64,000 nucleotides of DNA from Ochrobactrum sp. CM-21-5 (GTDB lineage Bacteria; Pseudomonadota; Alphaproteobacteria; Rhizobiales; Rhizobiaceae), in assembly GCF_014253075.1 (NCBI RefSeq), contig NZ_JACLZJ010000009.1, positions 1 to 64,000 on the forward strand, written 5' to 3'. Numbering within the stretch: position 1 is the first letter of the stretch; the number at the start of each line of letters is the position of its first letter. The position numbers and the translations under genes were made by a program. Under the pieces are notes generated by a model. It was given only the letters and a program-made list of their open reading frames with translations. It was not told the origin of the DNA and did not search any database. This document shows, one piece after another, positions 45,648-63,519 of this stretch.

Positions 45648-47502
45648 TATGCCTGCGCTTGAGCGTGTGAGCGCTTATGCGCAAGCCGTCATTGATGGCA
45701 GAGAAGTTGCCGGCCCTCACGTTCGTAATGCCTGCCGCCGCCATTTCGACGATCTCGAACACGGTCACGAGCGCGGCCTGTATTGGGATGACGACGCAGC
45801 CGACCGCGTGTTTCGGTTCTTTGAAGGGCGTCTCAAGCTTTCTGAAGGTCAGTTTGAAGGCAAGCCATTCAAGCTGCACGCCTCACAGGCTTTCAAGCTG
45901 GGTTCTCTCTTTGGCTGGAAACGTGCCGACGGTTCGCGCCGTTTTAGGCGCGCCTACATCGAGGAGGGCAAGGGTAATGGCAAGTCTCCGTTTGCTGGCG
46001 GTGTCGGTCTGTACGGGCTGATCGCGGACAAGGAAGCTGGCGCGCAGATTTATGCCGCCGCTGCCAAGAAAGAACAGGCTGGGATTCTGTTTCAGGACGC
46101 CGTGAAAATGGTTCGCGCGGCTCCGGCGCTGGTCGAACGACTGAAGTTCAGCGGCGGTATCGGGCGCGAGTTCAATATCGCGCATCACAAGTCGCAATCG
46201 TTTTTTCGCCCGATCTCGAAGGATTCCGGCAAGTCTGGCTCTGGTCCGCGACCGCATTTTGCGCTCTGCGACGAGGTGCACGAGCATCCCGACCGCTCGA
46301 CGATGGAAATGCTTGAGCGCGGCTTTAAGTTTCGTCGTCAGCCGCTGCTGCTGATGATTACGAACTCGGGCAGCGACAGAAACAGCATTTGCTGGGAAGA
46401 ACACGAGCATGCCGTCAAGGTAGCTGCTGGTACGCAAACGCCAGATGACGATTTTACCTATGTCGGCGAGGTGATCGACGACACGACATTTTCCTATGTC
46501 TGCGCGCTGGACAAGGGCGACCATCCGCTCAAGGACGAAACCTGCTGGAAGAAGGCTAACCCGCTTCTGGGCGTTATCTTGACGCAGGAATATCTGGCCG
46601 GCGTTGTTGCTCAGGCAAAGCAGATGCCGGGCAAGCTGAACGGCATTCTTCGGCTGCACTTCTGCTGCTGGACCGATGCCGACAAGGCATGGATGCCGCG
46701 CGAGACCGTCGAAAGCGTAATGGACGATTTCGATCCTGAAGTCGAACACGCTGACAAACCCGTTTTCATGGGCGTCGACCTGTCCGGTAGCAAGGATATG
46801 ACTGTGCTCGCGTGCGTTGTTCCTACTGGCTTCAAGGAAATGGAGCGGGAAGACGGATCTACCGTCAATCTGCCGACGTTTGATGCGTGGGTGGAGGCTT
46901 GGACGCCAGCTGATACGCTGGAAGCGCGAGAACAGGCTGACAAGGCGCCATATGCGCTTTGGGTAAAACAGGGGTGGTTGAATGCTCCGCCCGGCAAGCG
47001 AATTAGATATGATTTCGTGGCATCGCGGGTCCAGCAACTCGATCAGGCGTTCGATATCAAGGCCATCGCCTATGACCGCTATGCCTACGACAAGTTCCGC
47101 GAGGAAGTCGAAGCGCTCGGGTTGGACATTGAACATGTCGCGCACCCACAGGGCGGCAAGGTTCGGGCTCGGCCTGAGCCTGCGAAGGTAGAGGCTGCAA
47201 AAGCCGCTGGCTTACCGCCGCCGCAAGGCTTGTGGATGCCGGGCTCGGTTCTGGCGCTCGAAGACATGATCATCGACGGTCGCATTCGCATGCGCCGCAG
47301 TCCGGTGCTTATGACCGCCCTGATGGGTGCCACCTTCGATCATGACCCGCAAGATAACCGGTGGTTCGTGAAGACGAAGGCGTCAGTGCGCATCGACGCT
47401 GCTGTCGCTTTGGCAATGGCGGTTGGTGTGGCGATGGATACACCGATCGAGCCAGCCGACATCGACGACTTCGTCAACAACATGATCACTATAATTTACT
47501 AA
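45631..47502 (+). CDS. terL: Terminase large subunit (its 3' end replaced by element insertion)
   Basis: 623 residues from the ATG at 45631 (GAGG upstream; 45649 is an alternative). N-terminal ATPase: EEGKGNGKSPFAGGVGLYG as Walker A-like loop and FALCDEVHEH as Walker B. C-terminal nuclease acidic residues are in GVDLSGSKDMTVLACV. The last codons (NNMITIIY-stop) come from a 16-bp att repeat plus element DNA. The original ending, NNMITITW-stop, is still present at 63505-63534 just before the portal gene. Confidence 0.92.
   Translation: MICLTDMPALERVSAYAQAVIDGREVAGPHVRNACRRHFDDLEHGHERGLYWDDDAADRVFRFFEGRLKLSEGQFEGKPFKLHASQAFKLGSLFGWKRADGSRRFRRAYIEEGKGNGKSPFAGGVGLYGLIADKEAGAQIYAAAAKKEQAGILFQDAVKMVRAAPALVERLKFSGGIGREFNIAHHKSQSFFRPISKDSGKSGSGPRPHFALCDEVHEHPDRSTMEMLERGFKFRRQPLLLMITNSGSDRNSICWEEHEHAVKVAAGTQTPDDDFTYVGEVIDDTTFSYVCALDKGDHPLKDETCWKKANPLLGVILTQEYLAGVVAQAKQMPGKLNGILRLHFCCWTDADKAWMPRETVESVMDDFDPEVEHADKPVFMGVDLSGSKDMTVLACVVPTGFKEMEREDGSTVNLPTFDAWVEAWTPADTLEAREQADKAPYALWVKQGWLNAPPGKRIRYDFVASRVQQLDQAFDIKAIAYDRYAYDKFREEVEALGLDIEHVAHPQGGKVRARPEPAKVEAAKAAGLPPPQGLWMPGSVLALEDMIIDGRIRMRRSPVLMTALMGATFDHDPQDNRWFVKTKASVRIDAAVALAMAVGVAMDTPIEPADIDDFVNNMITIIY
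47474..47489. repeat. attL of the inserted element, in terL
   Basis: TCAACAACATGATCAC, identical to 63504-63519. With one mismatch the identity extends through ATAA (to 47494). It lies inside the last codons of terL. Confidence 0.85.
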
Positions 47503-47532
47503 GCTTAAAACTAGTAAGAAAATCAAATAGAT

Positions 47533-47558
47533 AGGCCCTTGGGTGGGCCTATTTATAG
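47533..47558 (+). terminator. Intrinsic terminator just inside the left end of the element
   Basis: ATAGGCCC and GGGCCTAT pair around TTGGGT or part of it and are followed by TTATAG. Only about 30 bp after the terL stop, so it would separate terL transcription from everything downstream. The T-run is weak. Confidence 0.55.
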
Positions 47559-47665
47559 CTAAAAGCCGCCGCTATGTATTCATTCGTAAAATCAATGGTT
47601 TAGCGTGAATTATCGAGAATTGACGGCTTCTCGATGCGACATTGATGCGACAAGAAAGGAAGCAC

Positions 47666-47872
47666 ATGGAACAGGAAAAAGAAGGGGCCGACCTGCTCTA
47701 TGGCGTCCCTGCAATTGCAACGTTCCTCCGTATGAGTGAGCCCGCAGTTTATCATTTATCCCGTCGTGCTGATTGGCCCGGATTCAAGATCGGCGGCAAG
47801 GTCTGCGCTCGCCGCTCAGCAATTGACCAGTGGATTTCCGACATGGAAGCAAAGGCGAGGTCAACACAATGA
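47666..47872 (+). CDS. AlpA/excisionase-like DNA-binding protein (left copy)
   Basis: 68 residues from the ATG at 47666 (AAGGAAG upstream). GADLLYGVPAIATFLRMSEPAVYHLSRRADWPGFKIGGKVCARRSAIDQWISDMEA is a complete AlpA-type HTH. It is a paralogue of the right-end gene at 62084, with near-identical DNA around GCCGACCTGCT. AlpA proteins control excision and gene expression in P4-like satellites and PICIs. Confidence 0.8.
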   Translation: MEQEKEGADLLYGVPAIATFLRMSEPAVYHLSRRADWPGFKIGGKVCARRSAIDQWISDMEAKARSTQ

Positions 47873-47964: not shown

Positions 47965-47965
47965 A

Positions 47966-49156
47966 ATGAAGCGCAAGCACGACATACCGGCATGGCGGCA
48001 GCAACAATTGGTCAGGCTGGCCTTACGCCATTCTGAGACAACTAAGGCTGACTGCGCCGTCCTTGCGGAGATCGTGCAGCGATACCATGGCGAGTACGGC
48101 AACGGCTGGGCCAGCTTCGATATGCTCATTGAAGAGACTGGCCTGCATAAGACCACAATCATCAAGGCAAAACGCAAGCTTGAACGGCTCGGCTTTGTTT
48201 CCGTCCTGTCACCGGGACGCAGGGGCCGCTCAACGGTCTACTTGCCGAATTTTGATTTAGTTCCCGAAAAAGGTAGTGCACAGACTACCGAAACAAAGGG
48301 TAGCGTAGACGCTACCGTAATTGATGGTTTGGGTAGTCAGGACGCTACCGAATATGGCGCTTTAGGTAGCGTGGACGCTACCACCTCCTACTTACAGTTA
48401 CCGGTTTACAAAACCGGTATACTGGAAAGTAATATTGACCCTGCTGCGCCGCCCATGGCTGGCCTTACGGCCGCCAGTGCAGGCGCGCATGGGGAAGGGA
48501 AATTCGACCAGCTATATAAAGCGTATGGCCACAGGCGGGGCAGGGCGGATGCTCGCAAGGCATATGAAGCCCTTGCACTGACCGACGAGGCACATGCCGA
48601 CATATTGGCCGCCGCTGAGGCATGGCGTCAGGCATGGGCGAGGCAGGGTAATCCTGATGCGCCACGCTTCACGCTCGCGAAGTGGCTGGAGCGCGAATGC
48701 TACCACGAAGACCCGCCGACCGGCTTTAAGTCCAAAGAGCCGAAGAAACCGAAATCGGAAAGTTTGCCTACCCGGAATGCGGCGACGGTAAGCCAGTCCG
48801 AAACGCCAGCGCCTGGTGAAGAATATGGCGCTATCGATGTTTGCGCGTTCACTCCTACCGGCACCTTCGAGGCCGAGATAATCGGCAGCGATGTCATTGC
48901 TACCGGGAACGAAGTCGTGTTGCGGCTGAATCTTCAACTGTCTGACGGGAAAGGAACACCTCTCGGTGAGACAGCCCATGAATTTTTCGTGCAGGCGAAT
49001 GAGAAATCCAAACAAGATCGCGGGCAGGCATTCCTTACACAAGTCGCAGAGGCAGTCGGCTTGAGGGCTCTTGAAGATTCGAGCGATTTTCACGGCAAGC
49101 GGTGCCGGGTCACGATCAATAACCGGCGAGAAATCACCTACCACAACACGAGGTAA
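47966..49156 (+). CDS. Lambda-O-like replication initiator with DUF669-like C-terminus
   Basis: 396 residues. N-terminal winged HTH (residues 25-90: ETTKADCAVLAEIVQRYHGEYGNGWASFDMLIEETGLHKTTIIKAKRKLERLGFV), as in phage replication initiators. The middle (about residues 100-140) repeats GSVDAT-like words because the DNA there holds four 18-bp palindromes. A helical part follows (AYGHRRGRADARKAYEAL). The C-terminal 110 residues resemble DUF669 (EYGAIDVCAFTPTGTFEAEIIGSDVI). The gene and its own origin in one piece mirror lambda O. Confidence 0.7.
   Translation: MKRKHDIPAWRQQQLVRLALRHSETTKADCAVLAEIVQRYHGEYGNGWASFDMLIEETGLHKTTIIKAKRKLERLGFVSVLSPGRRGRSTVYLPNFDLVPEKGSAQTTETKGSVDATVIDGLGSQDATEYGALGSVDATTSYLQLPVYKTGILESNIDPAAPPMAGLTAASAGAHGEGKFDQLYKAYGHRRGRADARKAYEALALTDEAHADILAAAEAWRQAWARQGNPDAPRFTLAKWLERECYHEDPPTGFKSKEPKKPKSESLPTRNAATVSQSETPAPGEEYGAIDVCAFTPTGTFEAEIIGSDVIATGNEVVLRLNLQLSDGKGTPLGETAHEFFVQANEKSKQDRGQAFLTQVAEAVGLRALEDSSDFHGKRCRVTINNRREITYHNTR
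48272..48382. repeat. Four 18-bp palindromic iterons inside the initiator gene (putative origin)
   Basis: GGTAGCGTAGACGCTACC (48299-48316) and related copies at 48272-48289, 48332-48349 and 48365-48382, spaced 27, 33 and 33 bp. Each begins GGTAG and ends CTACC. A further palindrome ACCGGTTT-ACA-AAACCGGT lies at 48400-48418. Arrangement like the four iterons of lambda ori within gene O. Confidence 0.75.
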
Positions 49157-49158
49157 AT

Positions 49159-49505: not shown

Positions 49506-49512
49506 CGGTTTC

Positions 49513-49583
49513 TCGGCCTTCGCCTAACGGTAGGGCAGCGCACTTTGAATGCGCCGGTACTGGTTCGATCCCAGTAGGCCGAT
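49513..49583 (+). tRNA. tRNA-Gln (UUG)
   Basis: Acceptor TCGGCCT/AGGCCGA, anticodon stem GCGCA/TGCGC with loop CTTTGAA (TTG), T-arm ACTGG-TTCGATC-CCAGT, discriminator T, encoded CCA at 49584-49586. Complete cloverleaf. Carried by the satellite. Confidence 0.9.
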
Positions 49584-49613
49584 CCATTTTTTCAAATACG
49601 GAGGCTATCGCCC

Positions 49614-49830: not shown

Positions 49831-50346
49831 ATGCGCAAATCGGCCGTCATTGAAATCCTTGCGCGCCGGCTCCGCATAGCGCCCGGACGCATTCAAGCAA
49901 TCGCGGATCGCTTGGCCTCCGCTGGCCTGATTTCGAACGCCGAGGGCAGTAGGCGATATCCTCCTGACCTGTCCGAACCTGAAATCGTCACGCTGGTTAT
50001 CGCGGTCATCGCCGATAGTGGCCTTGGCAACGTGAAAGCGACAGTTGACACGTTCTCGTCCTTGGCCAGCGAAGGGATTGCCTTCGGACACGTTCTTCAA
50101 CGTGTGCTGTTCGGCCGCCCGGTGGATATCGCACACGTCATCGTCCGTCATGACCCGGCAGGAGTGTCGGCGGTGATCGACGGCAATCATGCCGTCTATG
50201 GCGCTGAAGCACCTGAAAAAGCCGCAACGACGGCGCGCATCATTCCGGGCGATGCACTGATTGCCATCGCCGCAGAACTGCAAGGCCAGCACCCCCAGCA
50301 GGCGGATGCCTTGGTCGAACTTATCAAAATTCGGAGATCGCTATGA
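49831..50346 (+). CDS. Hypothetical protein with N-terminal winged-helix pattern
   Basis: 171 residues, ATG after AGGAGG. The first 45 residues (SAVIEILARRLRIAPGRIQAIADRLASAGLISNAEG) look like a winged helix. The rest is small alpha/beta. Overlaps the next gene by 4 bp and precedes the capsid gene. It may regulate the structural genes (inference). Confidence 0.6.
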   Translation: MRKSAVIEILARRLRIAPGRIQAIADRLASAGLISNAEGSRRYPPDLSEPEIVTLVIAVIADSGLGNVKATVDTFSSLASEGIAFGHVLQRVLFGRPVDIAHVIVRHDPAGVSAVIDGNHAVYGAEAPEKAATTARIIPGDALIAIAAELQGQHPQQADALVELIKIRRSL

Positions 50347-50633
50347 GCAAGGTTGAAGCGCTGCTCGACCGTTTGGCGGAAGCCACCGCCGAGTCCGACG
50401 ACTACGCCGAACTGCCGCCCGAACTCGCTAAAGAGGCAAGGCTGCATGTCTGGGATGCGCATTACGCCAATTCAGACGAACGCGCCCGCTTGGACGCGAA
50501 ACTGGCCGCTTCATCGCCTGAATTTCAGGCTGCTGTCGCGGTCACCGAAACGGCGCTGGCCGAAGAGCTTGCCGCCAATAATGAGCGACGCGCCCGCGTT
50601 CGCAGAGAAAACCCATCTTATTTCAAGGACTAA
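50343..50633 (+). CDS. Small acidic helical protein before the capsid gene
   Basis: 96 residues, acidic and helical (LAKEARLHVWDAHYANSDERARLDAKLAASSPEFQAAVAVTETALAEELAANNERRARVRRE). Its position 2 bp before the capsid gene and its composition would suit a scaffold-like or head-associated role, but no family is recognised. Confidence 0.5.
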   Translation: MSKVEALLDRLAEATAESDDYAELPPELAKEARLHVWDAHYANSDERARLDAKLAASSPEFQAAVAVTETALAEELAANNERRARVRRENPSYFKD

Positions 50634-50635: not shown

Positions 50636-51727
50636 ATGACAAATCTCGCAACTATGATTTCCGATCTGGGCAATGAATTCAAAGCCAGCACCGGCGACCT
50701 TTCCTCCCGCATCAGCGAGCTCGAAAAGCGTGCGGCTCGCGAGCCTTCCGGTGATATGCTCTATGCAAATGGCGAAACTATCGCCGACAAGATGGTAGAA
50801 TCCGCAGCCTTCAAGTCGCTGGAGGGTGGTCGCGTCCGTGGCCGTGCGCACGTCGAAATGGCGGCCATCACTTCCGGCAACACTACCGTTGGCACTGGTC
50901 GCTCCGCAGCTACTTCGCTGGTGGGTGCTGATCGCCGCCCTGGCATTGTTACACCTGCCGAGCGCGTCCTGACCGTCCGTGACCTTATCGCTCCGGGCGA
51001 AACCAGCGCGGGCTCAATCGAATACGTGAAGGAAACGGGCTTTACCAATAATGCCGCTCCCGTCGCTGAAACGACGCAGAAGCCTTACTCCGATCTGACA
51101 TTCGATCTGGTGACGGCACCGGTCCGCACGATTGCGCACCTTTTCAAACTGTCAAAGCAGATCATGGACGATGCGCCCGGTCTCGTCAGTTATGTGAACG
51201 TGCGCGGTACGTCGGGCCTGAAGCTCAAGGAAGAGAACCAGCTTCTCTTCGGCGACGGTACAGGTCAGAACCTTTTGGGCCTGATTCCACAGGCAACCGT
51301 ATTCGATGACGCGCTACGCTCCACGGGCGACACCCGCGTTGACACTCTGCGCCGTGCTATCCAGCAGGTACGCCGTGCCGAATACCGCGCATCCGGCATC
51401 ATCATGAACCCGGACGACCTCGCCGACCTTGAACTGACCAAGGACGCCGGCGGCAACTACATTATTGTCGATCCCGTTGAAGGCGGTCAGGGCCGAGTGT
51501 GGCGTCTGCCTATCGTGGACACCACTGCAATGCCAGCGGGTCAGTTCCTCGTTGGTGCGCTCGATACGGCTGCCCAACTTTTCGACCGTCAACAGGTGAT
51601 CTTCGAAATCTCGACTGAGAACGCCGACGATTTCGAAAAGAATATGGCGACTGCTCGTATCGAAGAGCGCCTGGCTCTTGCCGTGTATCGTCCGGAAAGC
51701 ATCGTTACCGGCCAGTTCGAAGCCTAA
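50636..51727 (+). CDS. HK97-fold major capsid protein
   Basis: 363 residues. Recognisable HK97 capsid pattern: a short coiled coil at the N-terminus, the P/E-loop region VRDLIAPGETSAGSIEYVKETGFTNNAAPVAETTQKPYSDLTF, then HLFKLSKQIMDDAPGLVSYVN, GDGTGQNLLGLIPQA and the C-terminal AAQLFDRQQVIFEISTENADDFEKNMATARIEERLALAVYRPESIV. It lacks the long delta domain, and no protease gene is adjacent. Capsid-forming satellites encode such a protein to build their own heads. Confidence 0.9.
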   Translation: MTNLATMISDLGNEFKASTGDLSSRISELEKRAAREPSGDMLYANGETIADKMVESAAFKSLEGGRVRGRAHVEMAAITSGNTTVGTGRSAATSLVGADRRPGIVTPAERVLTVRDLIAPGETSAGSIEYVKETGFTNNAAPVAETTQKPYSDLTFDLVTAPVRTIAHLFKLSKQIMDDAPGLVSYVNVRGTSGLKLKEENQLLFGDGTGQNLLGLIPQATVFDDALRSTGDTRVDTLRRAIQQVRRAEYRASGIIMNPDDLADLELTKDAGGNYIIVDPVEGGQGRVWRLPIVDTTAMPAGQFLVGALDTAAQLFDRQQVIFEISTENADDFEKNMATARIEERLALAVYRPESIVTGQFEA

Positions 51728-51877: not shown

Positions 51878-51891
51878 GAATGGAGATATCA

Positions 51892-52101
51892 ATGCCTGTA
51901 GGCAGACTAAAAGCATGGCGTAACGGCTATGGCTTTCTCACAACGGACAACGGTTCGGACATGTTCGTCCATATCACCGCATTCCAATTCGCGGGCGAAG
52001 AGCCAGAAGTGGGTGCCTTTTACTCGTACAAGGCCGGGATGTTTAAGGACAAGATTATCGCGACCCATCTGAAGCGTGTGGATGATCATGGCGACGGGTA
52101 A
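51892..52101 (+). CDS. Cold-shock-domain protein 1
   Basis: 69 residues from the ATG at 51892 (GGAG upstream). VGRLKAWRNGYGFLTTDNGSDMFVHITAF matches the RNP1/RNP2 motifs of CSD nucleic-acid chaperones. Overlaps the second CSD gene. Confidence 0.75.
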   Translation: MPVGRLKAWRNGYGFLTTDNGSDMFVHITAFQFAGEEPEVGAFYSYKAGMFKDKIIATHLKRVDDHGDG

Positions 52102-52318
52102 GGTCCTCTTTTTCCACAATGGCTACGGCTTCATCGCTGCCGAGCCTTGCAACGTTTTCTTCCATCGCGCTGCCGTCGATGGCGATGTGCCAAAGGCTGG
52201 CGATATGGTCCGCTACGATGCCATGCCAAGTGGCAGGAGTAGCCCTAAGGCGAACAGCGTTCGCGTCATCGACCAGGACGTCTTGGCCGAAGCTGAGCGG
52301 GTGTTTGGGTCGCAATGA
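52088..52318 (+). CDS. Cold-shock-domain protein 2
   Basis: 76 residues from the ATG at 52088. TGKVLFFHNGYGFIAAEPCNVFFHRAAV is a divergent CSD with the key aromatics kept. Tandem with the previous gene and 4-bp coupled to the HNH gene. Role in a satellite unclear: RNA chaperone or antitermination are options. Confidence 0.7.
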   Translation: MATGKVLFFHNGYGFIAAEPCNVFFHRAAVDGDVPKAGDMVRYDAMPSGRSSPKANSVRVIDQDVLAEAERVFGSQ

Positions 52319-52611
52319 GTAGAGGTGAAAGCGCAGCTTGGCAGCACCTTTATAAGCGGTCGAGATGGATCAAGATGCGTGAGCGACATCTGATGCAGTC
52401 GCCCTTGTGCGTTTATTGCCTTGAGGTTGGCAACGTGGAGCCTGCCACGATTTGTGATCATCGCACCCCGCATAGAGGGAGCGAGGATCTCTTCTGGGAC
52501 GCTGACAATCTCATGTCCCTTTGCAAGCCCTGTCATGATCGGATCAAGCAGCGCGAAGAACGCGGAGAGAAGGTCATTCGATTTGGCGCGGACGGATACC
52601 CCATCGAGTGA
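52315..52611 (+). CDS. HNH endonuclease of the inserted element
   Basis: 98 residues. CVYCLEVGNVEPATICDHRTPHRGSEDLFWDADNLMSLCKPCHDRIKQ is a full HNH motif, clearly related to the prophage copy at 44862 (shared PHRG, DLFW, RLKQ/RIKQREE). Probably acts with the element's TerS at a cos-like site. Confidence 0.88.
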   Translation: MSRGESAAWQHLYKRSRWIKMRERHLMQSPLCVYCLEVGNVEPATICDHRTPHRGSEDLFWDADNLMSLCKPCHDRIKQREERGEKVIRFGADGYPIE

Positions 52612-52724: not shown

Positions 52725-53081
52725 ATGCCCAAAAACCCCACAAATTCAGCGGTCAAACCGCCAAAACACCTGCGAAAACCAACGCAAAATTGGTTCAAAT
52801 CTGTAATAGACGACTTCGATTTGGAGCCTCATCATATCAAATTGCTAACTCTTGCTGCTGATGCGTGGGATCGGGCGGTCTCTGCGCGCGAAGTAATCGA
52901 CGCGGATGGGATGACTTACACCGACCGTTTCGGGCAGCCGAAGCCACGCCCAGAAGTCGCAATCGAGCGTGACTCCCGCATCGGCTTCACCCGCCTTATT
53001 CGCGAGCTTGCTTTGGATGGCGTGGATGCTCCAGAAACGCCGCGCCCACCGCGCACTGCCGACTACGGGAATAGGCGCTGA
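52725..53081 (+). CDS. Terminase small subunit of the element (P27-like)
   Basis: 118 residues. LRKPTQNWFKSVIDDFDLEPHHIKLLTLAADAWDRAVSAREVIDADGMTYTDRFGQPKPRPEVAIERDSRIGFTRLIRELAL is the P27 TerS pattern. Distinct in sequence from the prophage TerS (45261). With no TerL in the element it should redirect the helper's TerL, as satellite TerS proteins do. Confidence 0.8.
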   Translation: MPKNPTNSAVKPPKHLRKPTQNWFKSVIDDFDLEPHHIKLLTLAADAWDRAVSAREVIDADGMTYTDRFGQPKPRPEVAIERDSRIGFTRLIRELALDGVDAPETPRPPRTADYGNRR

Positions 53082-53628: not shown

Positions 53629-53997
53629 ATGTCCGATAAGCCTTTTTCACAGATTACGCAGCCATTTGGCGACGGCGAATATAACTTCGCGCTGACTTGG
53701 GATGGCGCGATTGAGTGGGAAGAAAAAACGAGCCGTAGCCTTTATGGCACCTTCAAATTTATGGCCGAACATCAAAGTGGATTGGTTGCCGATGTGCGCG
53801 AAATTATCCGCATCGCATTAGTCGGTGGCGGACTGGCTCCGATACGGGCTCTGTCGCTGGTCAAGCGATATGTGGAGGGGCGTCCGCTTGATGAAAGCCT
53901 ACCCGTCGCACTGAGCGCAATCGAGGCTTTCCTTTTCGGTCCCGACGATAAATCCGGCGACACCGCCAAGACGGGAGAAGTCCCAGCCGATGGCTAA
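53629..53997 (+). CDS. Gene-transfer-agent family (GTA gp10-like) tail protein
   Basis: 122 residues. DGAIEWEEKTSRSLYGTFKFMAEHQSGLVADVREIIRIALVGGGLAPIRALSLVKRYVEGRPL matches the GTA family protein found just before the tape measure in GTAs and siphophages, where it acts in tail assembly. Overlaps the gp10-like gene by 8 bp. Confidence 0.75.
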   Translation: MSDKPFSQITQPFGDGEYNFALTWDGAIEWEEKTSRSLYGTFKFMAEHQSGLVADVREIIRIALVGGGLAPIRALSLVKRYVEGRPLDESLPVALSAIEAFLFGPDDKSGDTAKTGEVPADG

Positions 53998-54430
53998 GAA
54001 ATGGCACGCATCGGCAGCGTTCAAAAAGAGGCTGGCGAAGCTGCCGGCATCTGTTCTCAAAAGGACCAATGAGGCCATCAAGAAGAACGCCGAGGAATGG
54101 GTGGACTGGGCGCAGAAGATGGCCCCGGAAGACCCGAAAGACGGCATTCATCTGAGGCCTTCGATCCGCAATTACGAATCTGAAACCGGCGGCCAGGTGG
54201 TTCGTGCAGGTGGCGAGGCGACAACCGTGAACGGTTACGATTATGCCCTTGGCGTCGAGTTTGGAACCGCGCCTCACATCGCAGGCGGTCAATTCGAAGG
54301 TGCGCATCATCCGGGTACGTCAGGGCAGCCGTTCTTTTGGCCCTCATATCGAATGCTGCGAAAGCGAATGTCTGGTCGTCGCCGACGCGCACTGAATCAA
54401 GCCGTGAAGGATTTCAACGATGGCAAGTGA
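53990..54430 (+). CDS. HK97 gp10-like head-tail/tail-completion protein
   Basis: 146 residues. FKKRLAKLPASVLKRTNEAIKKNAEEWVDWAQKMAPEDPKDGIHLRPSI, YALGVEFGTAPH and QPFFWPSYRMLRKRMSGRRRRAL fit the HK97-gp10 family. Overlaps the tape-measure gene by 11 bp. Confidence 0.8.
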   Translation: MAKKWHASAAFKKRLAKLPASVLKRTNEAIKKNAEEWVDWAQKMAPEDPKDGIHLRPSIRNYESETGGQVVRAGGEATTVNGYDYALGVEFGTAPHIAGGQFEGAHHPGTSGQPFFWPSYRMLRKRMSGRRRRALNQAVKDFNDGK

Positions 54431-56636
54431 ACCCGCCCTCTATGCTCGTATGGAAATGCGCGTGAAAGATGCCGAGAAGCAACTGGCGAAGTTCAGTCAG
54501 CGACTCGACCAATCGGCCGGCAGCATGGAGCGGCGATGGAGCCGTGCCTCCAAAAACATGCAGACGTCAATGTCAAAGGCATTCGGCGGCAGCAGTTTGG
54601 CGAAGGGCATTTTTGCGGGCGTTTCGGCTGCGGGCGCAAAAGAACTGATTGACGCCGCTATCCGTATCGAGAATGCGTTGAAAGTGGCCGGCCTGTCTGG
54701 CCAGCAATTGAATGACGTATATGACCGCCTGTTTCAGAGTGCGACCAAAAACGCAGCGCCACTTGAAACACTGGTCACGCTGTACGGCCGCGTTTCCTTG
54801 GTCCAAAAGAACCTCGGTGCATCGACCGAAGATCTTTTGAAATTCACCGATAGTATCGCCATGGCGCTACGGGTGGCAGGCACTAGCCCGGAACAGGCCA
54901 GCGGCGCTTTGCTCCAGCTTTCGCAGGCTCTCGGCAGCGGGACGGTGAGAGCAGAAGAATTCAATTCTATGATGGAAGGCGGTTTGCCGATCCTTCAAGC
55001 CGCGGCAGCGGGCATCAAAGAGGCTGGCGGCGATGTCGCGAAGTTGCGCAACATCATGCTGGACGGTGAATTATCTTCAAAGGCGCTCTTCAAAGGCATT
55101 GAGGCCGGAACGCCCATTCTGGAAGAGCGGCTCGCGGGCGCTGTTCTGACAATTGATCAGCGCATGACGAATCTGAAAACGGCGCTGGTCGATGCGGCGA
55201 AGCGCTTTAATAACTCGACGGAGGCAGCCAATACCTTCGGCACCGCCATCGACAATACCGCTGCGTTTATCAACAATATCAACTTTGAGACGTTCATCTC
55301 CAAGATAAATCAGGTTGTGGAGGCTTTTGCCAGAGGCCAGGCGGCTGCCAATAACTTTGCCAATGACGTTGGCGCGGCTCTCGGTCTGGATAATATCGGC
55401 AAGTTGCTAACCGGCGGCGAAGCGCAGAAGAGCTTCCTTGGTGGTGCGTTGACGATTACGTCATCGAAAGTTATTCAAGACCGCATTACCGATGCATTCA
55501 AGGGCGGTGCAGTCGAGGGCAGTGCCGAAATGGACAAGGTTCTGCGCGAGAAGTACGGGAAAGGCGCCCGCCTTAAGCCAGAAAGTACAAACCCCGGCAC
55601 CACTGCGCAATTCACCCCAGTATCCATCAAGGATTTCCCCGCAGACGGTGCCGGCAAGGATAAGAAGAAGAAAAGCGGCAGCAAAACCCACGCCAAAACC
55701 GCTGACCAGCAGATCGATAGCGACATTCAGTCGGTCCGCGATCGAATTGCAGCGATGCAGCTTGAAACGCAGCTTGTAGGCAAGTCGTATCAGGAGCAGG
55801 AAAAGCGGCGTATGTCGCTGGAGCTGGAGCAGGCAGCACTCGCCAAGCTTCGTGACGAGGCGATCAAGAAAGGTCAGACTGACCTTTCGAATATCAAGAT
55901 TTCAGAAGAAACACGCGGCAAGATTGACGCTGTGTCCGAGGCTTATGCAAGGCAAGCAGAAGAACTTCGCCGAGTTCAAGACCAGCAAGACCGAGCAGAG
56001 CAGGCGGCAGACGATTTCTACGATACGTTCAAAAGCAGCACGGTGGGCGCAATTACCGGCGCTAATAGCCTTGCCGACGCATTGCAGAACATTGCGAATA
56101 AGCTGGCAGACCTCTTCTTGAGTGCAGGTTTCGATGCCTTGTTTAAGCCATCTTCTGGCGGGGTCGGAGGCGGTGCCTTCGGAAGTATATTCAGCGGGCT
56201 GGGCAAGCTCATCGGCTTTGACAGCGGCGGCTACACGGGCCCCGGTGGCGTTAAGCAGCCAGCAGGCGTCGTTCACAAAGGTGAGGTCGTATGGTCCCAA
56301 GATGACATTCGCCGCGCCGGAGGCGTCGGTAAGGTCGAAGCCATGCGTCGCGGCCTTGCTGGTTACGAGCGGGGCGGGGCGGTGAGTATGCCTTCACTAT
56401 CGGCACCGCGTATGCCCGACCTTTCGCGCATCACGAACAACAGTAATAGCACGGTCAACAGCGCGCCTGTGATTAACGTGACTGTGAATGGGGCTACTGG
56501 CGATAAGGAAATTGAGGCTCGCGCTTTCTCTGGCGCCCAGAGAGCGATCATGCAGTGGCAAAAAACGCCGTATTTCGCCCAAGCCGTTGCTGGCGGCGTT
56601 AAACAGGCAAATAAGCGCGGGATGCTACCCCGCTAA
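54420..56636 (+). CDS. Tail tape-measure protein
   Basis: 738 residues. N-terminal tape-measure domain (ELIDAAIRIENALKVAGLSGQQLNDVYDRLFQSATKN, GTVRAEEFNSMMEGGLPILQAAAAGIKEAGG), central charged coiled coil, and a Gly-rich C-terminus with HKGEVVWSQDDIRRAGGVGKVEAMRRGLAGYERGG. The length of such a protein sets siphophage tail length. Finding it in an element with few other tail genes is odd; no major tail protein is visible. Confidence 0.88.
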   Translation: MASEPALYARMEMRVKDAEKQLAKFSQRLDQSAGSMERRWSRASKNMQTSMSKAFGGSSLAKGIFAGVSAAGAKELIDAAIRIENALKVAGLSGQQLNDVYDRLFQSATKNAAPLETLVTLYGRVSLVQKNLGASTEDLLKFTDSIAMALRVAGTSPEQASGALLQLSQALGSGTVRAEEFNSMMEGGLPILQAAAAGIKEAGGDVAKLRNIMLDGELSSKALFKGIEAGTPILEERLAGAVLTIDQRMTNLKTALVDAAKRFNNSTEAANTFGTAIDNTAAFINNINFETFISKINQVVEAFARGQAAANNFANDVGAALGLDNIGKLLTGGEAQKSFLGGALTITSSKVIQDRITDAFKGGAVEGSAEMDKVLREKYGKGARLKPESTNPGTTAQFTPVSIKDFPADGAGKDKKKKSGSKTHAKTADQQIDSDIQSVRDRIAAMQLETQLVGKSYQEQEKRRMSLELEQAALAKLRDEAIKKGQTDLSNIKISEETRGKIDAVSEAYARQAEELRRVQDQQDRAEQAADDFYDTFKSSTVGAITGANSLADALQNIANKLADLFLSAGFDALFKPSSGGVGGGAFGSIFSGLGKLIGFDSGGYTGPGGVKQPAGVVHKGEVVWSQDDIRRAGGVGKVEAMRRGLAGYERGGAVSMPSLSAPRMPDLSRITNNSNSTVNSAPVINVTVNGATGDKEIEARAFSGAQRAIMQWQKTPYFAQAVAGGVKQANKRGMLPR

Positions 56637-57081: not shown

Positions 57082-57612
57082 TTGCCGAACGACGAATTCG
57101 AAGTTGAACTAAGACTGATAGAGCCCAGTGATAAAGTCACTGGGCTTTCTCTTGGCAGTGAGGAGTTCACGCCGCTGAAGATGTTTATTCAGCGGAAAGC
57201 CAAGGATTATCAGGTCAATAGTTTTGCCAGGACTTATGGTCTGTTTGGCCCTGAGGCGAAACTGATCGGTTATATCACGCTCATCTGCGGCGAGATCCTG
57301 ACAAAGACGCCCCAGGACGTGATTCCGCCAGAACAGATCTACGACTACAAAACATTTCCATCTGTGAAGATTGCCCGCCTTGCCGTCGACAGACGATATC
57401 AGGGCAAGGGACTGGGCGATTATCTGGTTTCTTTTGCGATAGGTGTTGTCAAGGACGCGATTGCGCCTCACGTCGGTTGTCGTTTCGTCGTTGTTGATTC
57501 GAAACAGTCAGCGGTGAGGTTTTATGAGCGTCTCGGCTTCACGCTGCTTGATACAGCTACGAACAGGGCCAACGAACAGCCGGTGATGTATCTCGACATC
57601 CTTAAAGCCTGA
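57082..57612 (+). CDS. GNAT N-acetyltransferase, TacT/AtaT-like toxin candidate
   Basis: 176 residues with a TTG start immediately after the preceding stop. Acetyl-CoA-binding loop VDRRYQGKGLGDYLVSFA and C-terminal VVDSKQSAVRFYERLGFTLL are typical of GNAT toxins that acetylate aminoacyl-tRNA. Length fits. A metabolic acetyltransferase cannot be excluded. Confidence 0.65.
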   Translation: MPNDEFEVELRLIEPSDKVTGLSLGSEEFTPLKMFIQRKAKDYQVNSFARTYGLFGPEAKLIGYITLICGEILTKTPQDVIPPEQIYDYKTFPSVKIARLAVDRRYQGKGLGDYLVSFAIGVVKDAIAPHVGCRFVVVDSKQSAVRFYERLGFTLLDTATNRANEQPVMYLDILKA

Positions 57613-57795
57613 TTAGCGTTGATTTCTCAATGATGCGTTCCTGAGCGCCCGTCGTAGGGCGTTTCACCCGGGATTCCTGTGAACATCCCCTAGCATCAGG
57701 GCGGCGCGGGTTGTGCAGGTGGTCCCTTCCAATCATTCTACCTTGGGGCGAGACAGGGAGATAAATGCAACCTAACTCACCAAAGCGAGATCACC

Positions 57796-58026
57796 ATGAA
57801 TACCATTCCTTACACCGCGTCTCTTTCCTGCGGCACTTGCGGCACAAAGGGCGTTCGAATTGACGACGATGCGGACGAAAATTCCATCGTTAGATGTAAG
57901 AATCCCGACTGCGACACAACTTTCGGCACTTGGGGAGATGTCCGAAAAATGGTTCGCGAAAAAACGGCGAAGAAAGCCAAGGATGACATCGTTGCATCGC
58001 TGAGAAAATCTCTGCGGAAGAGATGA
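57796..58026 (+). CDS. Small zinc-ribbon protein
   Basis: 76 residues. CGTCGTKGVRIDDDADENSIVRCKNPDC is a four-cysteine ribbon, followed by a basic helical tail (KMVREKTAKKAKDDIVASLRKSLRKR). Stands alone between the GNAT and ATPase modules. Confidence 0.55.
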   Translation: MNTIPYTASLSCGTCGTKGVRIDDDADENSIVRCKNPDCDTTFGTWGDVRKMVREKTAKKAKDDIVASLRKSLRKR

Positions 58027-58115
58027 CGTGCGGCGCCCTTCGGGGCGTCTCAACGTCAACTATAGATTGATTATTCCACCGAGAACAATTATTCAACCTC
58101 TTGGTGGAGGGGCTT

Positions 58116-59279
58116 GTGAAAAAACTAACAATTCGTTATCGGCGCCGGCTTTTATATTGGGCTAACAAAAGGTCGCGCAAGAAAAACTCAGGCACGGCCA
58201 AATTTGGTTATGTTCTGAGCGCAGATAGATTCGACCAAGTAAGGCTACCGTCAAACGCGATACAGATGCCGAAAGTGTTTTGTTTAGTGCAAAACACCGA
58301 ACAAACGCTGTCGTTTCTGGAAAAAACGAGGCAGCGGTTGCTTGCCCCCCCATTGTCTGGAACGAGGTCTCTCGCGGCACATGTAACTGGGAAAAGGAAA
58401 AATAAATCCGCGCCGCGATGGATAGGCCCTTATGTTGACTTTACAACCATAGAATTCATCAGCCCAGCCGCGGCTCTGGTGCTTGCTGCGGAATATCACA
58501 GGGCTGTTCTACTGAAAGAACAGAGCACGAAGAATATTTCTCGGCTGTTCTTGGTCGACGTTCATAAATGGAAGGCAAATGTAATAGAGAGCTTGATTGA
58601 AGTAGGATTCTTTGAGCTTTTGAAAATCACTGAAGGTGTACAGGCGCCAGAAGAGGGGGACCGGAAAATTCTAAAACTTCGCAGTGGCAGTCGAAATCAA
58701 GCTGATGAAGTGGATGGATTGCTCAATAGTATTGAGGAAATGTTCAGTGGTGTAGGTTTGAACGCCAACGATGCGTGCTTTGAACTTAACGGCGCATTGG
58801 GCGAGGCAATGGAGAATGCAGTCCGTTGTGCCTATCCAACTGAAATTTCTTTTGGCCGACCTCATGTTTCAAAGTGGTGGATGACAGGATCACTTTCGAA
58901 GGCTCAGCGTCAAATGACTGTGGCGATATATGATCAGGGAGTATCTATACCAGGTTCGCTTAGTAGTTGGCAGCTTTACGGTGGATTCCTAAACCGATTT
59001 CTAAGGAAGTTCGGTATGGCAAGAGATAGCGCCGACCCCAGATTTGATGGAGATGTCATCGCACTGGCAATCGATGAATCTGTTACGTCTACGGGATTGC
59101 AAAAACATGGTAAGGGTTTGGGTCATATAAAGGCTTTTATCGATTCCTGTAGCGCTGGCAGTCTGTTAATTATAAGTAGGCAGGGAATGTATATATATGA
59201 AAAAGGGAAGCCGCCTCTCACGTACAATTTACCGATAAGATTATCAGGTACATTGATCCAGTGGAACGTTGTAATTTAA
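58116..59279 (+). CDS. STAS-like/GHKL ATPase-domain protein of a cargo trio
   Basis: 387 residues, GTG start at 58116 (GGAGGGG upstream; an in-frame TTG at 58101 is less likely). Middle segment VDFTTIEFISPAAALVLAAEYHRA looks STAS-like. The C-terminal half has GHKL ATPase boxes: N-box LGEAMENAVRCAY, G1-like YDQGVSIPG and G2 KHGKGLGHIKAFI. Clearly more AT-rich than the element's structural genes, so recently acquired. A DUF4325 gene and a membrane-protein gene follow. Confidence 0.65.
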   Translation: MKKLTIRYRRRLLYWANKRSRKKNSGTAKFGYVLSADRFDQVRLPSNAIQMPKVFCLVQNTEQTLSFLEKTRQRLLAPPLSGTRSLAAHVTGKRKNKSAPRWIGPYVDFTTIEFISPAAALVLAAEYHRAVLLKEQSTKNISRLFLVDVHKWKANVIESLIEVGFFELLKITEGVQAPEEGDRKILKLRSGSRNQADEVDGLLNSIEEMFSGVGLNANDACFELNGALGEAMENAVRCAYPTEISFGRPHVSKWWMTGSLSKAQRQMTVAIYDQGVSIPGSLSSWQLYGGFLNRFLRKFGMARDSADPRFDGDVIALAIDESVTSTGLQKHGKGLGHIKAFIDSCSAGSLLIISRQGMYIYEKGKPPLTYNLPIRLSGTLIQWNVVI

Positions 59280-59309
59280 TGGGAGTTAACCTTTAGAAGG
59301 TTAAATCAA

Positions 59310-59672
59310 ATGAGCTTGAGAGTCATCGAAGTGCTGGATATTGGAAGAGATTTTACACTGACGCCTGGTGCTCGGTATAAAAAGCATGGAGATTTTTCTG
59401 GCGAAGAATTTCGAACTAAACTTCTGGCTCCTGCTTTGCGGCGTGTAATCAATGCCGACGGGGTTCTGAATGTTGTCATTGATACTGTGAAAAGAAGCTA
59501 TCTGGTTTCTTTTTTAGACGAAGCTTTTGGCGGTTTAATAAGAGACGAAGGCTTTTCTCTAGAGCAAACAAATCAGCATTTAAATATTGTAAGCTCGAAT
59601 AAGCGATTCGAGAAATATAGAATACTAGCAAAAAACTATATTCTCCGGGCATCTGAAGAGCATGCCAAGTAA
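59310..59672 (+). CDS. DUF4325 (STAS-like) protein
   Basis: 120 residues. FTLTPGARYKKHGDFSGEEFRTKLLAPALRRVINADGVLNVVIDTVKRSYLVSFLDEAFGGLIRDEG matches DUF4325. This domain is often encoded next to GHKL ATPases, like an anti-sigma kinase and its STAS partner. Overlaps the next gene by 11 bp. Confidence 0.75.
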   Translation: MSLRVIEVLDIGRDFTLTPGARYKKHGDFSGEEFRTKLLAPALRRVINADGVLNVVIDTVKRSYLVSFLDEAFGGLIRDEGFSLEQTNQHLNIVSSNKRFEKYRILAKNYILRASEEHAK

Positions 59673-60147: not shown

Positions 60148-60273
60148 AAGTTAATATTGGAAATTCTAGTACTAACTTTAGATAGGCTTTAACCAACACG
60201 GTATTACTGACTTGTGCTCTTAAAGCATTCCAGTTCCAACCGATTGCGGAATTCAGCTATCGCGGTCATGAAG

Positions 60274-61542: not shown

Positions 61543-61985
61543 CCGACCTTTGCCAACTGGAAGCAGCCCTTCACGACATTCGCCGATCAAACCAGATCAT
61601 GGAAGTCCTGATCGAAAGCGTCTCAAGTAATGTCAAGGCGCTGATGTCGGTAGCGAATCTCCCTGCCGGGATTACGGCTGACGATAGACTGCTCGAATTT
61701 GAGATCAATCGTCAGAGCAGGCATTGTGCCGACGCTGAAACGATCCTCGCAGGAATGCAGAAGCGTGAACCCGAAACCGCGGCGAATGTGTTCCTCCTCA
61801 ATTTGAAGCGCACCGACCTACAGGACGGCACCGAAATCATTCTCGCCGGGAAGCCGCATACCATATCGCGTTCCTTGATAGGTCCCGATTGGTGGGATTG
61901 TCGTCAGGACGGCGAACTCATGGCGTCATTCCCCGCCAGACACCTGTTGAAACATGCATGGGTGCAGGGTGCCAAGCGTCACTGA
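61539..61985 (+). CDS. Hypothetical helical protein
   Basis: 148 residues. Helical N-terminal 90 residues (LEAALHDIRRSNQIMEVLIESVSSNVKALMSV), then a beta part (TEIILAGKPHTISRSLIGPDWWDCRQDG). ATGA-coupled to the upstream gene. Unknown. Confidence 0.55.
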   Translation: MTDLCQLEAALHDIRRSNQIMEVLIESVSSNVKALMSVANLPAGITADDRLLEFEINRQSRHCADAETILAGMQKREPETAANVFLLNLKRTDLQDGTEIILAGKPHTISRSLIGPDWWDCRQDGELMASFPARHLLKHAWVQGAKRH

Positions 61986-62073
61986 CAGGGAAATCATTGC
62001 CCTTGCTATCCTGATCGGCGTTGTTCTCGCCGGTCAGGGCTTCAACGGAACAGAACACCTCATTTTACCTTGA
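61969..62073 (+). CDS. Tiny membrane protein with GTG start
   Basis: 34 residues with one hydrophobic helix (EIIALAILIGVVLAGQGF). Overlaps the upstream gene and ends 10 bp before the right-end AlpA gene. Mirrors the tiny hydrophobic frame at 47869 next to the left AlpA gene. Confidence 0.35.
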   Translation: MPSVTDREIIALAILIGVVLAGQGFNGTEHLILP

Positions 62074-62083
62074 AGGAGAGAAC

Positions 62084-62287
62084 ATGACACACGGGGAAGA
62101 TAAAGCCGACCTGCTTTATGGGGCGCGGCCTATCGCGGATTTTCTAGGAATGACCGAGAAGCAGGCACGTCACAGGATTGATGACGGGCATATTCCAACT
62201 TTCCGCATTGGCGGCACGATCTGCTCAAGGAAGAGCACCCTGACAAAGTGGCTAGATGAAATGGAAGCGCAGGAGGCGCGGAAATAA
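62084..62287 (+). CDS. AlpA/excisionase-like protein (right copy)
   Basis: 67 residues, ATG after AAGGAGAG. KADLLYGARPIADFLGMTEKQARHRIDDGHIPTFRIGGTICSRKSTLTKWLDEMEA is an AlpA-type HTH, paralogous to 47666. Its stop overlaps the integrase start (TAATG), so it is the likely excisionase of the element. Confidence 0.82.
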   Translation: MTHGEDKADLLYGARPIADFLGMTEKQARHRIDDGHIPTFRIGGTICSRKSTLTKWLDEMEAQEARK

Positions 62288-63483
62288 TGGCGAGCGTTCG
62301 AAAACGCGAGTGGGAATACAACGGCGCTAAAAAAACAGCGTGGGTGGTAAATTACACCGATCTGGACGGAAAGCGCCGACTGAAGACATTCGAGAAGAAG
62401 AAAGACGCAGATGCTTATCGAGCCAAGGTCGAGGTCGAAGTTGAAGCCGGTTTGCATACCCCGGCGAGTTCCAAGCGCACAGTCAAGCAGGTTGCCGAGG
62501 AATACATCAAGAACTTGGAGTCGCGGTTGGCCGATGGCCGCATCAGCCTCGGATATCTGAAATGCTCAAAAAGCCGCATCGACAAGCATGTGGTGCCGTT
62601 TTTTGGACAGCGGATGTTCGATGAACTGAGCTTAGCGGACTTTGAGGGCTTCTATGATCACCTCGTTACCAAGGCCGGCAATGCGCCGTTCACAGCGAAA
62701 GAAATAATTGCACAGGTAGCCACTATGGAGAAATTCGCAGCTAAGCGCACGATTCCGACGAAATATGCTGCACGAGAAATGGTCGAAGAATTACGCGGGG
62801 TCAAAAGAGGAAAGATTGATACCTTCACCCGCGAACAGGCTATCGCCATTCTTGAAGCTTCTAAGGTGCGCGAACGGCACCGACAAGCGCGCAATCAAAA
62901 GCTTATAGAACTCATGGTGCATTTAGCCGCCATATGCGGCATGAGGCTTGGCGAAATCACTGGATTGAAATTGCCCCACGTTAATCTGGAACGGCGGGTG
63001 CTAGAGGTCCGGCACAGTATGCAGCCGAATGGTGAGTTGAAAGCCCCCAAAACCAAATCCGGTATACGTGATATACCGATGCCAGACGCAATCCACACCA
63101 TGTTCAAAGAATGGCTGGAACGTTACTATATCCAAAATGACCGGGAGCTTGTTTTCCTGACCTATAACGGCGGCCCTATGCATCGTCTCGATATCCACCG
63201 GCAATGGGTTGATTTGCTCAAGCGGTCGGGCGTGGGTGAAAATGGTCCGTCAGGAACACGATATCATTTTCATGCCCTTCGCCATTTTGCTGCCAGCTGG
63301 ATGGTCGATAACAATCTGCCGGTTACTGATGTGGCTCATATTTTAGGGCACAGCAAGTTCGATATGACCCTACAAGTTTACGCGCATCCATTGCGTGACC
63401 AGCGGGAGCGTCACAATGCAATGCAGAATCTTGCTGCCGGATTGCAGCCGTCGGCGCGACAAGAGAGCGACAAAGCCGCTTAA
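62287..63483 (+). CDS. int: Tyrosine site-specific integrase of the inserted element
   Basis: 398 residues. N-terminal arm-binding and SAM-like domains; catalytic domain with Arg in AAICGMRLGEITGLKL, Lys in PKTKSGIRDIPMP, HALRHFAA, GHSKFDMT and the nucleophile Tyr in LQVYAHPL. Ends 20 bp before attR, the usual int-att arrangement. It should recombine the TCAACAACATGATCAC core in terL. Confidence 0.95.
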   Translation: MASVRKREWEYNGAKKTAWVVNYTDLDGKRRLKTFEKKKDADAYRAKVEVEVEAGLHTPASSKRTVKQVAEEYIKNLESRLADGRISLGYLKCSKSRIDKHVVPFFGQRMFDELSLADFEGFYDHLVTKAGNAPFTAKEIIAQVATMEKFAAKRTIPTKYAAREMVEELRGVKRGKIDTFTREQAIAILEASKVRERHRQARNQKLIELMVHLAAICGMRLGEITGLKLPHVNLERRVLEVRHSMQPNGELKAPKTKSGIRDIPMPDAIHTMFKEWLERYYIQNDRELVFLTYNGGPMHRLDIHRQWVDLLKRSGVGENGPSGTRYHFHALRHFAASWMVDNNLPVTDVAHILGHSKFDMTLQVYAHPLRDQRERHNAMQNLAAGLQPSARQESDKAA

Positions 63484-63503
63484 ATCGCTGATTTCATTGG
63501 CAC

Positions 63504-63519
63504 TCAACAACATGATCAC
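63504..63519. repeat. attR of the inserted element
   Basis: TCAACAACATGATCAC, identical to 47474-47489. The bases that follow (CATAACCTGGTAG) complete the original terL reading frame (MITITW-stop). Confidence 0.85.

What the first reader, a model, noticed from the sequence alone, without database searches (positions are those of the whole stretch)
47474..63519. A phage satellite nested in its likely helper: integration into the prophage's terminase large subunit gene
Seen: exact 16-bp direct repeats flank about 16 kb; an integrase ends 20 bp before the right repeat; deleting the insert gives an intact terL ending NNMITITW-stop spaced correctly to the portal gene. The element carries AlpA, an initiator with its own origin, capsid, HNH and TerS but no TerL or portal. 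Known: PICI and capsid-forming PICI satellites use AlpA/int/rep, encode their own TerS and borrow helper TerL and tails. Inference: a satellite whose attachment site is the helper gene it parasitises, rebuilding the terL end so the gene stays functional. I know of no described family that targets terL.
Basis: partly seen in the sequence, partly recalled or inferred. Interest (0 to 1): 0.95.

Follow-up and report, generated by a model that had tools for sequence, protein, structure and literature searches.

The report
Phage satellite nested inside helper prophage
A 16-kb parasite of bacterial viruses sits inside the packaging-motor gene of a resident virus that probably serves as its helper, leaves that gene readable, and belongs to a little-known satellite family that carries its own capsid and tail-length proteins; living inside a helper gene is already known from enteric bacteria, but I found no report of it in this group.

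Summary
A 16,030-bp element (47474-63503) sits at the 3' end of a prophage terL between exact 16-bp repeats; 15 related viral contigs and 4 same-genus genomes carry the uninterrupted terL-portal junction. The likely helper is a 62-kb prophage at tRNA-Sec.

The element belongs to a satellite family found here in Hyphomicrobiales: a conserved unknown protein (orf171), a capsid protein, often HNH/TerS, usually tail chaperone, neck protein and tape measure, but no TerL, portal or protease. Relatives lie at tRNA genes (four firmly mapped, 15.7-16.5 kb); only this member was found in terL. Their capsid proteins have a scaffold (delta) domain about 35 residues shorter than in related phages, as in Ccm of SaPIbov5, and group with the helper's.

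One novelty claim is wrong: helper-embedded PICIs, including terminase-gene sites, were published in 2023 (PMC10111431). This case differs: another bacterial class, unrelated integrase, no attP motif, terL preserved rather than disrupted. PICI/cf-PICI membership is not met.

Best reading: the satellite borrows helper TerL, portal, protease and tail, and redirects head size, packaging specificity and tail length with its own proteins. Excision, particles and redirection are inferred. New variant of a known kind.

The parts
14617..14712 (+). tRNA-Sec; its last 15 bp (14698-14712) recur at contig position 93108-93122, the likely att sites of the helper prophage (composite 78.4 kb, helper alone about 62.4 kb)
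   Evidence: ARAGORN; repeat; sizes
44862..45152 (+). helper HNH endonuclease
   Evidence: PF01844; 46% identical to the satellite HNH
45261..45647 (+). helper TerS, labelled by position and similarity only
   Evidence: no Pfam match; 46% identical to proteins at the TerS position of satellites G096 and G340
45562..47502 (+). helper TerL, read through attL into the satellite end (NNMITIIY-stop); the true start is probably downstream of 45562
   Evidence: phrog_9 E 7e-135; relatives
47474..47489 (+). attL core, 16 bp
47527..47556 (+). 12-bp-stem hairpin just inside attL; possible terminator (the consensus scan lists it on the - strand only)
   Evidence: I4
47642..47872 (+). AlpA-like HTH_17 / excisionase-type regulator
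   Evidence: (below Pfam cut-off), phrog_18541, phrog_66
47966..49156 (+). replication initiator
   Evidence: phrog_270 E 5e-13
48272..48382 (+). four iteron-like imperfect palindromes (GGTAGYGTnGACGCTACC type) inside the initiator gene: possible origin
49513..49586 (+). tRNA-Gln (TTG) inside the satellite
   Evidence: no other match in the genome at E <= 0.001
49831..50346 (+). orf171, satellite-family marker just upstream of the capsid gene; function unknown, confident model without fold match
50343..50633 (+). orf96, small protein between orf171 and capsid; relatives in G353, G211, G424
50636..51727 (+). major capsid protein, HK97 fold, delta domain about 84 residues
   Evidence: PF05065 E 3e-58; HK97 alignment; lengths; tree
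51880..52318 (+). two cold-shock-domain-like small proteins (51880-52101, below Pfam cut-off; 52076-52318, above it)
52315..52611 (+). HNH endonuclease
52725..53081 (+). terminase small subunit
   Evidence: PF05119; phrog_83
53629..53997 (+). tail assembly chaperone, GTA-gp10-like
   Evidence: PF11836; phrog_8985
53990..54430 (+). neck / tail completion protein, HK97 gp10-like
54420..56636 (+). tape measure protein, 738 aa
   Evidence: PF20155 E 4e-48
57082..59672 (+). cargo zone: GNAT acetyltransferase (57082), HATPase protein (58101, just below Pfam cut-off), DUF4325 STAS-like protein (59310)
   Evidence: PADLOC: nothing but a borderline match of the GNAT protein
62021..62287 (+). second AlpA-like protein, next to int
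   Evidence: phrog_18541; 40% identical to the first
62287..63483 (+). tyrosine integrase, pointing outward
   Evidence: PF00589 E 2e-28; phrog_1
63504..63519 (+). attR core, 16 bp
63541..64000 (+). start of helper portal gene (continues beyond window), followed on the contig by S49 peptidase, capsid, neck, chaperone and tape measure genes
   Evidence: PF04860, PF01343, PF05065, PF04883, PF11836, PF20155

Best explanation
The insert is an integrated phage satellite of about 16 kb whose tyrosine integrase recombined a circular form into the last codons of terL in a resident 62-kb HK97-like prophage. Its attP carries replacement codons and a stop, so TerL can still be made with two altered C-terminal residues (the open frame is shown by sequence). 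In the lysogen the helper late operon is split between terL and portal; on induction the satellite excises (int plus AlpA), replicates from the origin in its initiator gene, and uses helper TerL, portal, protease, tail tube and tail tip. It adds its own TerS/HNH to choose its DNA, its own capsid protein with a short delta domain to co-assemble with the helper's and give a smaller head, and its own tape measure with chaperone to set the tail (all inferred from anatomy and from precedents). Because the composite would be 78 kb, about 1.26 times the helper, the helper probably also needs the excision to be packaged (inferred).
For: Empty sites in 15 viral contigs and 4 genomes. A satellite family exists independently of this site: orf171 homologues in 10 of 394 family genomes (own genome, 7 further strong, 2 weak) and in IMG/VR. 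Of 12 neighbourhoods examined, ten carry orf171 and MCP and give no TerL, portal or protease hit. Four are delimited by 41-54-bp tRNA repeats at 15.7-16.5 kb, two more only by 14-15-bp repeats at 17.1 and 19.2 kb. Short delta domain: 14 of 14 satellite rows have 92-103 residues before an anchor column against 121-187 in 74 of 74 untruncated others; HK97 alignment puts the window's delta at about 84 residues. Precedent: Ccm of SaPIbov5 has a delta of 87 against 128 in phi12 CP and redirects capsid size (PMC8569155); PLE TMP and TAC make chimeric, shorter tails (PMC12987554). Helper link: satellite MCPs plus the helper MCP form one supported group (98/95) apart from 52 other phage MCPs; the satellite TMP is 76% identical over residues 427-668 to the TMP of a phage with the same terL-portal junction (L124).
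Against: No excision, replication, particles or transfer shown. The helper's own TMP is only 26% identical over a third of the satellite's. TerS was not detected in five of the ten relatives and TMP not in two, so the set is not fixed. terL-bearing prophages are only weakly enriched in satellite genomes: 2 of 8 against 17 of 386 (P 0.05); with the weak orf171 hits 2 of 10 against 17 of 384 (P 0.08). No noncoding DNA such as a shared cos was found between satellite and helper. Satellite rows in the delta comparison are related and some nearly identical, so 14 of 14 is not 14 events, and the residue counts use the most upstream ATG, an upper bound. No second terL-inserted case was found.
Confidence: 0.72

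Rival explanations
1. It is a defective second prophage (remnant) that integrated into terL and has lost TerL, portal and protease; the capsid and tail genes are decaying leftovers.
For: It carries capsid, neck, chaperone and tape measure genes as a phage does; TerS and TMP vary among relatives.
Against: A similar reduced set, order and size recur at tRNA sites in several genera with precise ends in four cases and open frames; the short delta domain is a consistent difference; AlpA, initiator and integrase frames are open.
Confidence: 0.12
2. It is an interference island: capsid, tape measure and cargo genes poison or block incoming or resident phage, and it is not packaged itself. Insertion in terL simply places it where it is co-transcribed with late genes.
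For: Relatives carry defence-like cargo in the same zone: SLATT effector domains, RelA/SpoT-type, a protein I read as dGTPase-like (sequence, no family scan); the window carries a HATPase plus DUF4325 pair.
Against: Own TerS/HNH, replication initiator with origin-like repeats, and integrase point to mobilisation; satellites can do both.
Confidence: 0.12
3. The junctions are an assembly chimera.
For: No reads were available.
Against: Single contig of 109,609 bp with the same prophage type on both sides, att repeats, integrase adjacent to attR, and natural empty sites of the same sequence; IMG/VR's copy has the same structure but probably stems from the same assembly.
Confidence: 0.03

Closest known systems
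Helper-embedded PICIs (HE-PICI; Tommasini, Mageeney, Williams 2023, PMC10111431)
   Same: [quoted passage not shown] int, AlpA, replication gene, captured late genes such as capsid.
   Different: HE-PICIs there come from Enterobacterales, one integrase clade, int at the upstream end pointing inward, doubled TGTATTGC attP motif, and they disrupt the gene without replacement sequence. Here: Hyphomicrobiales, integrase 21% over 189 aa to that of 11capE, no such motif, int at the downstream end pointing outward, terL kept readable.
SaPIbov5 and cos-type SaPIs with Ccm (PMC8569155)
   Same: Satellite-encoded HK97-fold homologue of helper capsid protein with a shorter delta domain (87 against 128; here about 84 against an estimated 120 in the helper), no own protease found.
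   Different: Gram-positive hosts; no satellite tape measure gene mentioned in the passages I saw.
PLE of Vibrio cholerae (PMC12987554)
   Same: Satellite-encoded TMP and tail assembly chaperone used with helper tail parts.
   Different: PLE11 virions hold helper capsid proteins and the helper is ICP1; TMPs were not compared here.
cf-PICIs (Alqurainy et al.; features recalled, only a figure legend in PMC12987554 seen)
   Same: AlpA, integrase, own capsid, HNH, TerS; some have putative tmp genes. The same genome holds a cf-PICI-like element (contig C1, 582.8-600.4 kb).
   Different: No TerL, portal or protease in the window element.

Membership tests
HE-PICI (sensu Tommasini 2023) | integrated within a helper prophage late gene | tested here: met
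   helper role inferred
HE-PICI (sensu Tommasini 2023) | integrase of the HE-PICI clade | tested here: not met
   21% over 189 aa, 29 bits to the 11capE integrase, the one clade member compared; no tree was made
HE-PICI (sensu Tommasini 2023) | doubled TGTATTGC motif flanking the attP core | tested here: not met
   TGTATTGC absent from both strands of the insert (exact 8-mer only)
HE-PICI (sensu Tommasini 2023) | target gene disrupted, no replacement sequence | tested here: not met
   terL stays open through attL to a stop at 47500-47502, two residues altered
cf-PICI | own packaging and head set with TerL, portal, protease, MCP (recalled) | tested here: not met
   only five frames of 250 codons or more in the insert, none TerL or portal; no protease match among the scanned ORFs
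Gram-negative PICI | int, alpA and primase, most genes unidirectional, int at the upstream end | tested here: inconclusive
   int and AlpA-like present; O-like initiator instead of primase; int at the other end; one ORF (60274-60630) on the - strand
orf171 satellite family (defined here) | orf171 directly upstream of a short-delta MCP, no TerL/portal/protease | tested here: met
phage satellite in general | mobilised by a helper phage | not testable with these tools
   needs induction or transfer data

The most novel reading that the evidence does not exclude
An independently evolved helper-embedded satellite lineage in Alphaproteobacteria that lets its helper keep making TerL while its 16-kb insert (with a hairpin just inside attL) cuts the helper late operon off from portal and capsid until excision, and that reshapes head and tail at once through its own short-delta capsid protein and tape measure. 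It would be both a second origin of the helper-embedded lifestyle and a satellite family acting on head size, packaging and tail length together.
Probability: 0.35. Interest if true: 0.8.

Novelty: new variant of a known kind. Interest (0 to 1): 0.62.

Why it matters
It suggests that living inside a helper late gene is not confined to one enterobacterial integrase clade, and that an integrase can choose the packaging-motor gene while sparing it, which changes the logic from 'helper gene off until excision' to 'motor on, head genes downstream split off'. It also brings out a satellite family in Hyphomicrobiales that combines a Ccm-like short-delta capsid protein with a tape measure and chaperone, so head-size and tail-length redirection could be studied in one system, with tRNA-integrated relatives as controls.

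Tried and rejected
Other copies of this integrase: in 35 genus genomes one match besides the own genome at E <= 1e-60 (38% identity); in 394 family genomes none but the own at E <= 1e-75; viral contigs only the own genome; phages 1,378 records, all under 60% identity, best listed 29%; plasmids 316 records, best listed 43%; genome contigs none, where the own genome may be left out. Hence no second terL-inserted case was found; for terL types with another C-terminal end I did not check the junctions systematically.

Defence annotation of the cargo: PADLOC gave only a borderline match (E 0.01) of the GNAT protein among ten proteins. orf171 fold: confident model (pLDDT 86.8) but no PDB or BFVD match with E <= 0.001.

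Terminator: the hairpin inside attL folds at -22 kcal/mol (z -3.3), but the consensus scan lists it on the - strand only, so termination of helper late transcription is weakly supported. Shared cos: no noncoding DNA similarity between insert and helper at E <= 0.01. Helper co-occurrence: borderline. Tape measure lengths overlap between satellites (560-793) and the others (635-1473 for intact rows, one short row of 217 left aside), so a shorter tail is a tendency only.

Dropped, changed or faulty rows: in the delta comparison L030 and L084 (MCP at contig start) and C1 (cf-PICI-like element, 108) were left out of the 77 others, leaving 74; G340 was moved from 134 (first ATG) to 103 (GTG after a Shine-Dalgarno-like stretch) on inspection. 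The helper's 145 rests on a TTG start; with its first ATG it is 130, which I use. Identical MCP cores and L284 (partial) were left out of the tree (68 rows). The portal query was one base out of frame; the corrected one was used. In one search one of five integrase seeds (L210) was a wrong frame, so the G424 row there is void; G424 does have an integrase by Pfam, which was not compared.
Full report
1. The observation. The window is the first 64,000 bases of a 109,609-bp contig. Repeats of 16 bp (47474-47489, 63504-63519; 21 bp with one mismatch) bound 16,030 bp and occur nowhere else on the contig. By rough calculation such a repeat is expected by chance about 0.04 times in 17.5 kb (my arithmetic), and here it lies on the last codons of terL and 20 bp after an integrase. 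The joined flanks read NNMITITW-stop, and this very junction, followed by GAGTGCCCATGGGCC and the portal gene, is present in 15 different viral contigs and 4 same-genus genomes. In the window terL ends NNMITIIY-stop instead. Among the held loci whose terL carries this end, the only interrupted one is the window's own genome. Many of the 80 terL loci fetched from viral contigs have another terL end or are cut before it, and their junctions were not checked systematically.

2. The helper. The last 15 bp of tRNA-Sec (14698-14712) recur at contig position 93108-93122, giving a composite of 78.4 kb and a helper of about 62.4 kb. Left of the insert lie a primase-polymerase gene, HNH, a TerS candidate without Pfam match, and TerL; right of it portal, S49 peptidase, a capsid protein, neck, chaperone and an 805-aa tape measure. 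In the 11 relatives with the same terL end that I compared, portal is 98.1-99.5% identical to the helper's. A second terL of this type on contig 23 is not interrupted and lacks the site.

3. The satellite. From left to right: AlpA-like protein, initiator with four iteron-like palindromes inside its gene, tRNA-Gln, orf171, orf96, HK97-type capsid protein, two cold-shock-like proteins, HNH, TerS, tail chaperone, neck protein, tape measure, cargo (GNAT; HATPase and DUF4325 proteins), a second AlpA-like protein and the integrase. Of the ORFs scanned none matches TerL, portal or protease, and no unassigned frame reaches 250 codons.

4. The family. I examined 12 neighbourhoods. Ten have orf171 followed by an MCP and no TerL, portal or protease hit with two queries for each; G266 is cf-PICI-like (portal and protease present) and G064 is cut by its contig end. 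Of the ten, TMP was found in 8, neck in 7, chaperone in 6, TerS in 5, HNH in 3. In five elements with repeats at both ends (G394, G277, G353, G211, G096) ten of the larger unassigned ORFs were scanned and none is TerL or portal; the 481-aa ORF of G353 was only read by eye (dGTPase-like). The integrases of six of the ten (G421, G422, G394, G277, G211, G353) were compared with the window's: at best 29% identity. The elements lie near tRNA genes: tRNA-Phe (54-bp repeat, 16,087 bp; 51 bp, 15,740 bp), tRNA-Pro (48 bp, 16,457 bp), tRNA-Arg (41 bp, 16,308 bp), and with short repeats of 14-15 bp tRNA-Met (17,068 bp) and tRNA-Ser (19,153 bp); in the other four no convincing repeat was found, three of these being virus records that may be cut. 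So the family normally seems to use tRNA sites, and the window member has a different, terL-directed integrase.

5. Capsid protein. Aligned to HK97, the window's MCP matches the mature protein from about residue 85, so its delta domain is about 84 residues; its listed start is the first start codon after a stop in that frame, so no longer form is open. Counting residues before a fixed column, 14 of 14 satellite rows have 92-103 and 74 of 74 untruncated others 121-187, most of them 126-132. Counts use the most upstream ATG, an upper bound. The helper has 130 with its first ATG, hence a delta near 120 by my estimate. The rows are related, so this is a consistent difference and not many independent events. 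In the MCP tree (68 rows) the satellites, the C1 element, the helper and L021 form one group (98/95) against 52 other phage proteins; within it satellites need two changes of label and one origin is not ruled out. Passages and the first part of the discussion of PMC8569155 report delta domains of 128 (phi12 CP) and 87 (Ccm), with Ccm redirecting capsids to T = 4 and unable to form capsids alone. The parallel makes co-assembly with helper MCP, and cleavage by the helper protease, the likely way of working. This is inference.

6. Tape measure. PMC12987554 (section 8 and six passages) shows that PLE TMP gives chimeric, shorter tails, with a chaperone gene next to it, and its Extended Data legend mentions putative tmp genes in cf-PICIs. 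The window's TMP is 738 aa against 805 in the helper; its closest stretch elsewhere is in the 925-aa TMP of a phage with the same terL type (76% identity over residues 427-668). Part of the TMP gene is 82% identical in DNA over 301 bp to that of the cf-PICI-like element on contig C1 of the same genome, a sign of exchange between satellites.

7. Comparison with HE-PICIs. Of PMC10111431 I read parts 1-5 of 8 and the discussion and passages. It reports 491 further helper-embedded PICIs in 14 sites of nine late genes, including A:Terminase_1, with excision after induction shown for 11capE. Its search used one integrase against 165,778 proteobacterial genomes, and its authors found phage surroundings only among Enterobacterales hits; they expected more HE-PICIs to exist. 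The window's case differs in integrase (21% over 189 aa to 11capE), lack of the 8-bp motif, gene orientation and preservation of the target gene. Further searches of the paper library for helper-embedded satellites (3 papers), for nested or terminase-gene insertions (none; 16; 12, of which 10 listed) and for satellites in this bacterial group (2; none; 201, of which 10 listed, none on satellites by title) showed no earlier report of this family in what was listed; the library holds open-licence papers only, and most hits were seen as listings.

8. Host. No tool names it. The sampled family spans 109 genera with genomes down to 1.1 Mb and the named relatives are Hyphomicrobiales (order from my knowledge); I infer Rhizobiaceae in the GTDB sense.

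9. Verdict. Satellite nested in a prophage at the terL 3' end: well supported. Helper role of that prophage: likely, from gene kinship and position. Redirection of head, packaging and tail: inferred with strong precedent. Operon splitting: speculative.

Noticed in passing
G000 contig C1, about 582758-600385 (L013, L014): A cf-PICI-like element in the same genome: int, AlpA-like, primase, portal, protease, short-delta capsid (108 before the anchor), HNH, TerS, TerL and a 660-aa tape measure, bounded by 48-bp tRNA-Phe repeats.
   Followed up: partly
window 49513-49586: A tRNA-Gln (TTG) gene inside the satellite without another match in the genome; possibly a relic of an earlier tRNA attachment site or cargo.
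   Followed up: partly
L250, L247, L248 (cargo zones of relatives): Relatives carry SLATT effector domains, RelA/SpoT-type, NA37 and a dGTPase-like protein (the last read by eye) after the tape measure or capsid zone: a likely defence cargo spot.
   Followed up: partly
window 58101-59672: HATPase protein followed by a DUF4325 STAS-like protein, unmatched in PADLOC; a candidate two-gene system.
   Followed up: no
window 44480-44556: A tRNA-Met-like gene inside the helper prophage just upstream of its HNH gene.
   Followed up: no
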